The position numbers and the translations under genes are program-made. Positions 8,464-10,342 of a stretch of 37,481 nucleotides of DNA are shown piece by piece. The DNA comes from a virus. Location of the stretch: IMG/VR virus record IMGVR_UViG_3300037963_001699, positions 1 to 37,481 of that record. One strand, given 5' to 3'. The notes under the pieces are model-generated. The model ran no database searches. It worked only from the letters and a program-made list of their open reading frames with translations, and was not told the DNA's origin. The number at the start of each line of letters is the position of its first letter. Position 1 is the first letter of the stretch.

Positions 8464-8563
8464 CTTTTACCTCCTCTAGTATTTGATTCAAAATATCTTT
8501 TAACTTTCTTACGTCTTCTTTCAGTTTGATAATATTGTTTTCCATATCTATGGCTCTTCCCAT
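8357..8563 (-). CDS. Small coiled-coil protein with low-complexity tail, 68 aa
   Basis: AAGGAG sits six bases before the ATG, whose first base is the last base of the HNH gene stop (TAATG). Residues 8-35 form a heptad-like Leu/Ile helix (NNIIKLKEDVRKLKDILNQI), and the rest is a Glu/Ser/Asp/Lys-rich disordered tail. The disordered tail coincides with the out-of-frame start of the next gene, suggesting that the tail is what tolerates the overlap. Function unknown. Confidence 0.6.
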   Translation of the reverse strand: MGRAIDMENNIIKLKEDVRKLKDILNQILEEVKDEHEEEKANDKGSSSSDRQDNTESKSSTDNKRKSK

Positions 8564-9018
8564 TATTTTCTCCTTTTACTTTTTTGGTATGAGTACCAGT
8601 TTTGTTGTTTAGCTGTTTTAATTCTGTGACAATTTGCGCATAATATGACACACTTTTCAATCTCTTTTTCAATGGCTTCGATGGAGTAACCATGTGTAGC
8701 CATATTCGATACACTGTTTCTTTTCGTTTTCGGGTCAACATGGTCAAATTCGAGAACGATAGGATTGCTTTCACCGCAAGCAATACAAGGATTACTAAGC
8801 TTAAACTCATATATCAATTGTCTTCCATATTTTTTAAGTCGAGCTGTATTGTTTCTGGTCCTTCTTTTGTAGCTTGCCTTATTCGCTTTATAATGCGCTC
8901 TAGAATATTCTCTTGTGCATACTTTACACTTACCAGATTTAATTTTTTTTGTTTTGCTCCTCCAACTGAAAGAGCTGATACATTTTGTTTTTTTACAGGC
9001 ACTACACTTCTTTTTCAT
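8563..9018 (-). CDS. HNH endonuclease with N-terminal zinc finger
   Basis: The 151-aa protein has an N-terminal zinc-binding pair CSAC (5-8) and CKVC (31-34), a basic middle, and an HNH core: CIAC (78-81), FDHVD (D92, H93) and CANCH (127-131). This is the Cys4-type HNH module that makes divalent-metal-dependent breaks. It may be a free-standing homing-type nuclease or a processing enzyme for recombination. It overlaps the upstream gene by 17 nt and the downstream one by one base, so it is part of the operon rather than an isolated insert. The ribosome site is weak (AGAAG). Confidence 0.85.
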   Translation of the reverse strand: MKKKCSACKKTKCISSFSWRSKTKKIKSGKCKVCTREYSRAHYKANKASYKRRTRNNTARLKKYGRQLIYEFKLSNPCIACGESNPIVLEFDHVDPKTKRNSVSNMATHGYSIEAIEKEIEKCVILCANCHRIKTAKQQNWYSYQKSKRRK

Positions 9019-9316
9019 TATCTTCTACCATTCCCCAAAGCAGGAAGCAGTATACAATAATATCTGTAATTCTACCTCTTACATCTTCCCTTTGTGAGCG
9101 GTGTCCATCAGCATAAGCACAAAGCCCATCAAGGTGTTTAATCATATAAGTAAGTAAAGCTTTTTCTCTTGTTGTTCCTGTAAATGATGCTACTCTTTCA
9201 AAATTTGCAAAAGCATTATCTAAATCTCTTGCATACTCATCTTGTCCAGCATCTCTAGTAAATTTGACTAACTCAATTATTTCATCAATAAGTTTTGCCA
9301 TTTCTTTTCTAGACAC
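9002..9316 (-). CDS. Conserved phage protein, possible MazG/DUF1599-like helical fold
   Basis: I place the start at GTG 9316, which has AGGAG five bases upstream and overlaps the previous stop; an in-frame ATG at 9346 has no ribosome site. This gives 104 aa. The protein is all helical, with the pattern NFERVASFTG..., MIKHLDGL and REDVRGRITDIIVYCFLL. The KHLD...GR..D...Y.LL layout occurs in a widespread phage family that resembles all-alpha nucleotide pyrophosphohydrolases. The catalytic ExxED helix is not clear, so the enzymatic role is unproven. Confidence 0.6.
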   Translation of the reverse strand: MSRKEMAKLIDEIIELVKFTRDAGQDEYARDLDNAFANFERVASFTGTTREKALLTYMIKHLDGLCAYADGHRSQREDVRGRITDIIVYCFLLWGMVEDNEKEV

Positions 9317-9455
9317 GTTTTCTCCTGTCTCTATACTCATAAGCATTTAATTGATATTCATTACCAACCATCCTTGATAGTGGCCATCCATTTGGTAATT
9401 TATCTAACTCATTTCGTATCTTTTGAACTCTTTGCCAAGTTTTATTTTTCGACAT
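9309..9455 (-). CDS. Small basic protein, 48 aa, unknown
   Basis: The ATG at 9455 has GAGGAG seven bases upstream; a longer frame reaching 9545 crosses a structured non-coding gap and lacks a site. The protein is basic and aromatic (TWQRVQKIRNELDKLPNGWP) with a YRDRRKRV tail. Its stop overlaps the GTG start of the next gene, indicating coupled translation. No family recognised. Confidence 0.55.
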   Translation of the reverse strand: MSKNKTWQRVQKIRNELDKLPNGWPLSRMVGNEYQLNAYEYRDRRKRV

Positions 9456-9483
9456 CTTTATTCTCCTCTTATCCTTATAAATT

Positions 9484-9575
9484 TGCGGAAGACCTTGAAA
9501 GGTGGGAAAGAAAATAGTGAGTAGGGACTCTACAAAACCACCCATGCAACCTCACGATATACATTATCTTCCGCA
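9484..9575 (-). other. Nested inverted repeats in a 124-nt gap (possible RNA element)
   Basis: The gap between the HTH gene stop (9580) and the next start (9455) is closed by perfect 9-bp arms, TGCGGAAGA at 9484-9492 and TCTTCCGCA at 9567-9575. Inside lie GGTGG (9501-9505) with CCACC (9538-9542), and GAGT (9519-9522) with ACTC (9527-9530). The stems nest, so a leftward transcript could fold into one long branched hairpin ending about 30 nt before the next ribosome site. It is not followed by a T-run, so it is not a simple terminator. Confidence 0.45.
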
Positions 9576-9579
9576 TATA

Positions 9580-9735
9580 TTATCTGTTTATATGTCTGTA
9601 TACACTTGCTTGTGATACACCTACTATTCTACTTATTCTTTTTGCTTTTAGGCCCATACTATACAAAGTGTTTATAAAAAACTTTCTAGGTGAACCTACA
9701 CGAACATACTTTTTCTTAAAATGGGATTTCTTCAT
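9580..9735 (-). CDS. Small helix-turn-helix DNA-binding protein, 51 aa
   Basis: The C-terminal half, GLKAKRISRIVGVSQASVYRHI (written here as two helices around VGVSQ), is a resolvase/sigma-like helix-turn-helix; the N-terminus is very basic (MKKSHFKKKY). The ATG at 9735 has GGGAGG 11 bases upstream. Its first 20 nt overlap the end of the SSB gene, covering the codons of the SSB acidic tip. It is followed by a structured gap. A transcriptional regulator or origin-binding factor are both possible. Confidence 0.65.
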   Translation of the reverse strand: MKKSHFKKKYVRVGSPRKFFINTLYSMGLKAKRISRIVGVSQASVYRHINR

Positions 9736-10342
9736 CTTTAGTTGTGCCTCCCTCCCATGTTTTGATATATTTAACTTCAAAAGGTGTTCGTTCTTGCCCT
9801 TCTTTTGTTTTATATGGTTTACCAGCATCTATTATAGCAATTGCGGGCTTTCCATTTATATCATCAGCTTTTAGCTGAGGAAGAACTTGAACCTCTACAT
9901 CTTGACCGTTCATCTGTACAACTTTTCTTGGTATATCTTTACCTAGTGTCTCACAGAAACGTAGGTATCTATCGTTACCTTTTGAATTAGATACAAAGTC
10001 ATCGCCTTCTTTTGGCTCTAAAAACCTAAAAACACCATTAGCCTTATAACTTCTACCTACATAATCTTTTCCGCTGTATTCGGTATCGTTATTACCTTTA
10101 TATGTTTGTTCAGCAGTTTTAGCATCAATTACAAAATTGTAGTTATAAACTATAGCTTTGAAATTTTTACCATCTCTACTCCAGCCAACTTCTCTACAAG
10201 ATGACTCTTGTAGGTGTCCATAAAATTCACCACGAACATTTGGTGCTGATTTAGGTTTATCTGTTTTTTTATCTTCTCCTGGAACGAAGAAGCTTTCTGT
10301 ATCGTTTAACATTTCGTCAAACATTTTAGCAGTCTCACTCAT
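9716..10342 (-). CDS. Single-stranded DNA-binding protein (SSB-like)
   Basis: The 208-aa protein ends in DEEIPF, matching the acidic protein-docking tip (DDDIPF) of bacterial SSB. The middle is beta-rich (CREVGWSRDGKNFKAIVYNYNFVIDA, in two pieces, then KANGVFRFLEP) as expected for an OB-like fold. It lies directly after the annealase gene, sharing TAATG, with AAGGAG upstream. The role would be coating ssDNA at forks and during recombination. It is not closely similar to canonical SSB, so it may belong to a phage-specific family such as DUF669-type proteins. Confidence 0.7.
   Translation of the reverse strand: MSETAKMFDEMLNDTESFFVPGEDKKTDKPKSAPNVRGEFYGHLQESSCREVGWSRDGKNFKAIVYNYNFVIDAKTAEQTYKGNNDTEYSGKDYVGRSYKANGVFRFLEPKEGDDFVSNSKGNDRYLRFCETLGKDIPRKVVQMNGQDVEVQVLPQLKADDINGKPAIAIIDAGKPYKTKEGQERTPFEVKYIKTWEGGTTKDEEIPF

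What the first reader, a model, noticed from the sequence alone, without database searches (positions are those of the whole stretch)
9484..9575. Nested inverted repeats fill the only large gap in the recombination block
Perfect 9-bp arms 74 nt apart enclose two further stems, in the gap between HTH and 48-aa genes. It has no terminator tail. A leftward leader of this kind could control translation of the downstream genes or bind the adjacent HTH protein; alternatively it may be an origin-like DNA structure close to SSB and helicase genes.
Basis: partly seen in the sequence, partly recalled or inferred. Interest (0 to 1): 0.5.

Follow-up and report, generated by a model that had tools for sequence, protein, structure and literature searches.

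The report
New phage RNA behind stop codons
Just after the stop codon of a small gene, this uncultured phage carries a three-armed folded RNA that related phages keep by matched mutations and that matches no family in the RNA catalogue we could search; what it does is still a guess.

Summary
The perfect 9-bp arms are real, but such arms are no commoner in the window than in shuffles (36 versus 46.9, sd 10.9). The proof is comparative. A 93-nt minus-strand element (9575 to 9483) recurs in uncultured phages as a three-way junction: closing helix P1, hairpin P2 with a GNRA tetraloop (31 of 31 tabulated members), and P3 with a pyrimidine-rich internal loop capped by P4. On a structure-blind alignment of 15 members, 52 cells show two-sided changes (0 of 500 shuffles) in 14 of 28 pairs (2 of 500). 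The coding-strand RNA is the more stable in 30 of 31. No Rfam 15 family reaches its threshold. Members start -4 to +11 nt from a stop codon, behind four different genes; 27 of 36 records have exactly one, 9 none. Best mechanism, inferred: a cis-acting intercistronic element that affects translation or processing, perhaps through an anti-Shine-Dalgarno-like tract (cognate pairing p = 0.09 over 15 members; 0.002 in a post hoc subset of 9). Binding the HTH protein and a DNA origin are not supported. Expression and function are untested.

The parts
9483..9575 (-). whole structured RNA element (covariance-model match)
   Evidence: cmsearch R1 68.4 bits, E 1.7e-15 (the window is one of the 15 training rows); covariation
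9566..9575 (-). P1 5' strand UGCGGAAGAU; begins 4 nt after the HTH stop codon
   Evidence: fold; spacing
9484..9493 (-). P1 3' strand GUCUUCCGCA
   Evidence: fold
9544..9564 (-). P2 hairpin with one bulge, closed by C-G over the tetraloop
   Evidence: fold; helix 2 has changes on both sides in 6 of 7 pairs
9552..9555 (-). GUGA (GNRA) tetraloop of P2
   Evidence: GUGA 21, GCGA 9, GCAA 1 among 31 members; 4 of the 31 were fetched by a pattern that holds the loop
9538..9543 (-). P3 5' strand GGGUGG
   Evidence: pairs with 9500-9505; helix 3
9500..9505 (-). P3 3' strand CCACCU
9517..9533 (-). P4 hairpin GUAGAGU-CCCU-ACUCAC
   Evidence: fold; helix 4 (the window's P4 sits in another register in the model alignment A7)
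9506..9516 (-). pyrimidine-rich 3' strand of the P3/P4 internal loop, UAUUUUCUUUC; anti-Shine-Dalgarno-like
   Evidence: pairs with the window's own upstream-of-start stretch at least as well as with any of 14 others; tract pattern (post hoc)
9463..9467 (-). Shine-Dalgarno AGGAG of the 48-aa gene, possible partner of the tract
   Evidence: sequence; predicted pairing only
9580..9735 (-). 51-aa HTH protein gene; its stop codon ends 4 nt upstream of P1
   Evidence: the listed frame is open for 82 aa, to an ATG at 9828
9716..10342 (-).
9309..9455 (-). 48-aa gene downstream of the element
   Evidence: a similar peptide lies further downstream in L001, by eye

Best explanation
The element is a new class of structured RNA in the leftward replication/recombination transcript of an uncultured phage lineage: a three-way junction of P1, P2 (GNRA-capped) and P3/P4, with a pyrimidine-rich internal loop. 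Shown by comparison: the fold, its conservation by compensatory change, the RNA strand, a GNRA loop in the tabulated members, and a position at a stop codon. Inferred: it works in cis at the RNA level. The element begins 2-4 nt after the stop codon in 27 of 31 members, so a terminating ribosome would cover P1's 5' strand, and P1 would close when the ribosome leaves. Closing P1 brings the end of the upstream gene next to the start region of the next gene and holds the anti-Shine-Dalgarno-like tract close to it. The likeliest outcome is control of translation (coupling or Shine-Dalgarno sequestration) or of processing and stability at that junction of the polycistronic mRNA.
For: Covariation on a structure-blind MAFFT alignment of 15 members: 85.6% of cells paired (0 of 500 shuffles as high), 52 cells with changes on both sides (0 of 500), in 14 pairs (2 of 500), slid controls 42-56% paired. 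On model-fitted alignments: 17 members 91.3%, 15 pairs, 60 cells; 25 members 91.0%, 23 of 28 pairs, 136 cells, 0 of 500 on every measure. Model R1, trained on 15 rows, was given 18 loci fetched by their HTH protein: 7 new members at E 4e-6 to 2e-10, one more that looks the same as a training row (L057), 5 weak (E 0.008), 5 none; later L213 at E 4e-8. Model R2, not trained on the short form, found it in two records at E 8e-6 and 2e-5. G-U cells exceed A-C cells, 32 to 12 on A3 and 32 to 3 on A7. Sense strand more stable in 30 of 31, mean 6.4 kcal/mol. Element start -4 to +11 nt from a stop codon in 31 of 31, behind four different upstream genes. Tracts pair with their upstream-of-start stretch better than shuffled tracts, -5.90 versus -4.00 (sd 0.38), 0 of 500; cognate beats swapped partners at p = 0.002 in the 9 members whose next gene is within 30 nt.
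Against: Over all 15 members cognate pairing is not significant (p = 0.09; p = 0.07 in an earlier set of 16). The subset of 9 was chosen after the first test, is not corrected for kinship and holds about three lineages; in L267, L027 and L008, 14, 13 and 12 of 14 swapped partners are better. Any tract like the 16S 3' end would beat its shuffles. Further pair types are no more than in shuffles (218 of 500), and the two outermost P1 pairs often do not form (11 and 7 of 25). Downstream genes differ, unlike a regulator of one product. In L008, L011, L026, L027, L029 and L037, 72-99 nt lie between the element and the next gene; in the L072-L079 group no Shine-Dalgarno gene follows directly. One copy per record suits a stand-alone RNA as well. 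No expression data. Compact phage genomes may place an element near a stop codon without functional reason.
Confidence: 0.5

Rival explanations
1. A trans-acting small RNA processed out of the operon transcript: the paired ends and compact fold make a stable RNA whose exposed pyrimidine tract binds Shine-Dalgarno regions of other mRNAs or a host protein.
For: One copy per record in 27 of 36; neither neighbour is fixed; conserved loop sequence.
Against: No terminator-like site and no excess of promoter-like sites in 9200-9900 (2 found, 3.1 expected); members hug the preceding stop codon on the coding strand of the gene before them.
Confidence: 0.22
2. A replication-origin element, either as a DNA hairpin or, better, as a structured transcript that primes replication.
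Against: Strand-specific G-U pairs, GNRA loops and greater stability of one strand argue against a plain DNA hairpin. I did not look for iterons or an unwinding element.
Confidence: 0.1
3. A recoding element: in one subgroup ribosomes pass from the HTH stop codon over the RNA into an open frame that starts at its 3' edge (bypassing or long-range reinitiation).
For: In 7 members of the L072-L079/L213 subgroup a frame (KKLTPEERLRRY...) is coding, with 102 of 141 pairwise base differences at third positions (pairs are not independent); it abuts P1, has no start codon at a common place and no Shine-Dalgarno site that I could see.
Against: Each open frame holds some ATG, GTG or TTG (reading); the HTH-to-frame offset, worked out by hand from coordinates, is not constant modulo 3; the window and its nearest relatives have an ordinary Shine-Dalgarno gene instead; a joined peptide had no match in phage records.
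Confidence: 0.06
4. A binding site for the adjacent HTH protein (autoregulation).
For: In 25 of the 31 tabulated members the element directly follows the HTH gene.
Against: Six of 31 lie behind three other genes; some HTH genes are followed by other hairpins instead (L063, L064, L069, L071; by eye).
Confidence: 0.05
5. Chance inverted repeat without function.
For: Arms alone are not above chance in the window; single-sequence z-score only -1.6.
Against: Covariation and untrained hits.
Confidence: 0.01

Closest known systems
L17 downstream element (RF01708; Weinberg et al. 2010, PMC2864571, passages seen)
   Same: A structured RNA directly downstream of a gene, with GNRA loops and G-U pairs that fix the strand; its target gene is uncertain.
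   Different: Downstream of bacterial ribosomal protein L17 genes, not in phages; the Rfam library, which lists it, gave no match to the element.
manA, wcaG and PhotoRC-II motifs (same paper, passages seen)
   Same: Structured RNAs found largely in marine metagenomes and in cyanophages.
   Different: Those are tied to metabolic, exopolysaccharide or photosynthesis genes; no cmscan match, and the genes next to this element are HTH, HNH and small unknown genes.
T4 gene 60 bypass region (recalled; only search listing and abstract starts seen)
   Same: A stop codon followed at once by structured RNA, then a coding continuation, as in the L072-L079 subgroup.
   Different: No such continuation next to the element in the window; no evidence of a hop.
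Pseudoknotted Shine-Dalgarno-sequestering riboswitches such as preQ1 or SAM-II (recalled)
   Same: A compact fold whose loop could pair with the ribosome-binding site.
   Different: No ligand known, downstream genes not of one pathway, pairing only suggestive.

Membership tests
Any Rfam 15 family | Score at or above a family's gathering threshold | tested here: not met
   Window: 0 matches; 9400-9720: 0 up to E 5; 11 related loci whole: 0; three other members' stretches at E<=5: 3, 4 and 1 hits, all far below their gathering scores
Evolutionarily conserved structured RNA | Compensatory change above shuffled and slid controls on an alignment not fitted to the structure | tested here: met
   four of five measures exceed the shuffles, further pair types do not
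Evolutionarily conserved structured RNA | Transcribed | not testable with these tools
   No transcriptome at hand
Intrinsic terminator | GC-rich stem followed by a U run | tested here: not met
   0 found in 9200-9900; some relatives (L003, L024, L016) do have a short U run after P1, by eye
tRNA or tmRNA | ARAGORN model match | tested here: not met
   0 genes in the window
Shine-Dalgarno-sequestering leader | The tract pairs its own downstream site better than non-cognate sites | tested here: inconclusive
   p = 0.07 (16), 0.09 (15), 0.002 in a post hoc subset of 9
Shine-Dalgarno-sequestering leader | Translation of the downstream gene responds | not testable with these tools
   Needs a reporter assay
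DNA hairpin origin | No strand preference in pairing | tested here: not met
   Sense strand more stable in 30 of 31; G-U above A-C
HTH operator or partner RNA | Always linked to the HTH gene | tested here: not met
   Other upstream genes in L064/L067, L251/L252/L277 and L267

The most novel reading that the evidence does not exclude
The three-way-junction RNA is a ribosome-bridging element: lying flush behind a stop codon, it folds as the ribosome terminates and hands the ribosome to the next reading frame, by Shine-Dalgarno-gated reinitiation in the window's group and by bypassing or non-canonical reinitiation in the L072-L079 group, where a conserved coding frame starts at the RNA's 3' edge without a consistent start codon.
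Probability: 0.1. Interest if true: 0.85.

Novelty: new variant of a known kind. Interest (0 to 1): 0.55.

Why it matters
It adds a structured RNA class, with covariation support and a searchable model, to uncultured phages. It recurs behind stop codons of different genes and occurs once in the records where it is found, which is unusual for a leader. If it couples termination to initiation, it would be a compact phage device for setting protein ratios in an operon; if it is a small RNA, it would be a new phage regulator. Either is testable with a reporter and RNA-seq.

Tried and rejected
Arms as evidence by themselves: rejected, since 9-bp arms are no commoner than in shuffles and the single-sequence fold is weak.

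tRNA, Rfam family, terminator: rejected.

Cultured relatives to name a host: blastn of the region and tblastn of the 208-aa and HTH proteins found nothing in 50,697 phage records; the terminase has 766 matching records, all under 60% identity, the listed best about 25%. The one genome-contig hit (L216, Algibacter, 33% over residues 36-116) has no element at E<=1, but the tool warns that such an empty answer shows nothing. Host unknown.

Tighter scans gave 39 and 31 stretches; I gave the model 47 of these 70, leaving out 23 from contigs already known. It returned 18 matches; the five with E below 1e-7 were kept (L272 has the same sequence as L267), the other 13, from 33.9 bits down, were set aside because the pattern itself forces P1 and the tetraloop. 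Of those I looked only at L248 and L232 (nearly alike, another core) and L183 (beside what looks like a tRNA end).

Three reverse-strand hits (L013, L009, L005, E 0.5-1) overlap true members and were dropped. L076/L214 and L215 (P1 and a short P3, no P2, by eye and fold) were not found by the models and are not counted. L010/L070 has another hairpin after its HTH gene and gave no hit.

The 105 nt after HTH stops are more structured than background (mean z -2.59 in 30 versus -0.76 in 175 windows), but 10 of 30 were not below -2, partly because three elements are longer than the stretch used.

The tract pattern (31 of 31 against a shuffled mean of 14.9, maximum 23) was written after seeing the sequences and matches anywhere in the 3' part, so it is weak evidence.

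In one search the frame was sought in 10 loci of that subgroup and found in 7 by its first bases; L079, L214 and L215 were not counted because the search motif missed them.

Full report
Observation. The window carries, on the plus strand, perfect 9-bp arms at 9484-9492 and 9567-9575 with 74 nt between them. They fill the gap between two minus-strand genes: an HTH protein whose stop codon ends at 9580 and a 48-aa protein starting at 9455. Read as minus-strand RNA the gap folds at -28.1 kcal/mol with nested stems; the plus strand folds less well (-21.8). By itself this is weak: z -1.60, and perfect 9-bp arms at such spacing number 36 in the window against 46.9 (sd 10.9) in 20 shuffles. The case therefore rests on relatives.

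Relatives. The 208-aa protein upstream of the HTH gene found 11 loci in IMG/VR, 10 of which carry the element and one (L010) another hairpin; a profile of it found 30 loci, several on the same contigs. The element follows the HTH stop within a few bases. Of eight members folded alone, seven show P1, P2, P3 and P4 or close to it; the free fold of L008 departs. In remoter relatives (L031-L034, L038-L041) other inverted repeats occupy the place, by eye.

Covariation. On a MAFFT alignment made without structure (A3, 15 rows), 85.6% of cells pair (0 of 500 shuffles), 52 cells change on both sides (0 of 500) in 14 of 28 pairs (2 of 500), and no shuffle reaches the covariation score; only the number of further pair types is ordinary (218 of 500). 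Sliding the partner by 1-3 columns drops pairing to 42-56%. On model-fitted alignments, which lean towards the structure, the figures are 91.3%, 15 pairs, 60 cells (17 rows) and 91.0%, 23 pairs, 136 cells (25 rows). In the 25 rows the two outermost P1 pairs fail in 11 and 7. In the window P1 itself differs from most members by compensated changes (table).

Strand. Non-Watson-Crick cells are G-U rather than A-C (32 versus 12 on A3, 32 versus 3 on A7). The sense strand is the more stable in 30 of 31 members (30 distinct sequences), by 6.4 kcal/mol on average. P2's loop is GUGA in 21, GCGA in 9 and GCAA in 1 of 31, all GNRA; 27 of the 31 were not fetched by a pattern holding that loop. The element therefore acts, if it acts, as RNA of the gene-coding strand.

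Independent finds. Model R1, trained on the 15 rows of A3, was run on 44 sources that included 18 loci fetched by their HTH protein. Among these it found 7 new members, L072-L075 and L077-L079, at E 4e-6 to 2e-10; L057, which looks the same as training row L037; and a short form in L064-L068 at E 0.008; five gave nothing. L213 came later at 4e-8. With model R2, not trained on the short form, two such records scored 8e-6 and 2e-5. Pattern scans then gave L251, L252, L277 and L267/L272; those E-values are biased because the pattern imposes P1 and the loop.

Context. In the 31 members tabulated (L004, L006, L007, L057, L065, L066, L068, L272 and same-contig duplicates left out), the element starts -4 to +11 nt from the end of a stop codon, 2-4 nt in 27. 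The upstream gene is the HTH gene in 25, a 99-aa gene in L064/L067, a 197-aa gene in L251/L252/L277 and an HNH-like gene in L267 (named by eye). The following gene differs: the 48-aa protein in the window, a CWHC-type small protein, short membrane-like proteins, others. Whole-record searches found exactly one copy in 27 of 36 records and none in 9.

Mechanism. I think a cis role most likely (about one in two). The geometry puts P1's 5' strand under a ribosome terminating on the upstream gene, so folding would follow termination. The internal-loop tract resembles an anti-Shine-Dalgarno (recalled knowledge of the 16S 3' end). Tracts pair with their own upstream-of-start stretch better than shuffled tracts do (-5.90 versus -4.00, sd 0.38, 0 of 500). 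Cognate partners beat swapped ones at p = 0.09 over 15 members, and at p = 0.002 in the 9 whose next gene is within 30 nt (an earlier hand-typed version over 16 gave 0.07). The subset was chosen afterwards and holds about three lineages, so I treat it as a lead. The window's own tract has no better partner among the 14 others. Sequestration, coupling of termination to reinitiation, and protection or processing at the junction are all open; none is shown. Variable downstream genes and the single copy leave a trans-acting RNA as the main rival.

A stranger subgroup. In L072-L079 and L213 a frame reading KKLTPEERLRRY... begins at the 3' edge of P1. In the 7 sequences compared, 89 pairwise codon differences are synonymous and 39 not, and 102 of 141 base differences fall at third positions, so it is coding. 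No start codon sits at a common place and I see no Shine-Dalgarno site, though each open frame holds some possible start. This could be reinitiation, bypassing, or plain initiation that I cannot see. It is the basis of the novel case, not of the main claim.

Known or new. No Rfam 15 family matches at threshold in the window or in 11 relatives, and sensitive scans of four stretches gave nothing or hits far below threshold. The 208-aa and HTH proteins have no match in 50,697 phage records. Five paper searches listed nothing that by title or abstract start describes this element; I saw only passages of PMC2864571, which gives the nearest precedents. Most subscription journals are outside that library, so absence from print is not shown. 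The phage is a tailed phage by its portal, terminase and major head genes, with no close cultured relative.

Noticed in passing
L072:1208-1312, L073:4224-4322, L074:4217-4321, L077:4227-4325 and L075, L078, L213: A coding frame (KKLTPEERLRRY...) begins at the 3' edge of the RNA without a common start codon or visible Shine-Dalgarno site, while the HTH frame ends AAA-TAA just before the RNA.
   Followed up: partly
L008, L011, L026, L027, L029, L037, just 3' of the element: A further conserved stretch (hairpin, then CUCGUCGAAAAGAG and a GC hairpin, then GACUC) lies before the next gene; possibly a pseudoknot, possibly a short leader peptide. Seen by eye.
   Followed up: no
L267:3238-3345 and L038 after the HTH gene: A different stretch in both: a long closing helix around a hairpin with the same loop GGUGAGCA, by eye. 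In L267 no Rfam hit reached its threshold; L038 was not scanned.
   Followed up: no
L063, L064, L067, L069, L071 after the HTH stop: Where the three-way junction is missing, HTH genes are followed by GC-rich hairpins whose 3' strand is CU-rich, by eye (z-scores).
   Followed up: partly
L214/L076 and L215 after the HTH stop: A reduced form with P1 and a short P3 carrying UUUUU...UUCCUUUC but no P2; L214 has another large hairpin before it.
   Followed up: partly
window 8563-9018 (-): HNH endonuclease gene inside the replication block (phrog_2255, E 5.6e-34).
   Followed up: no
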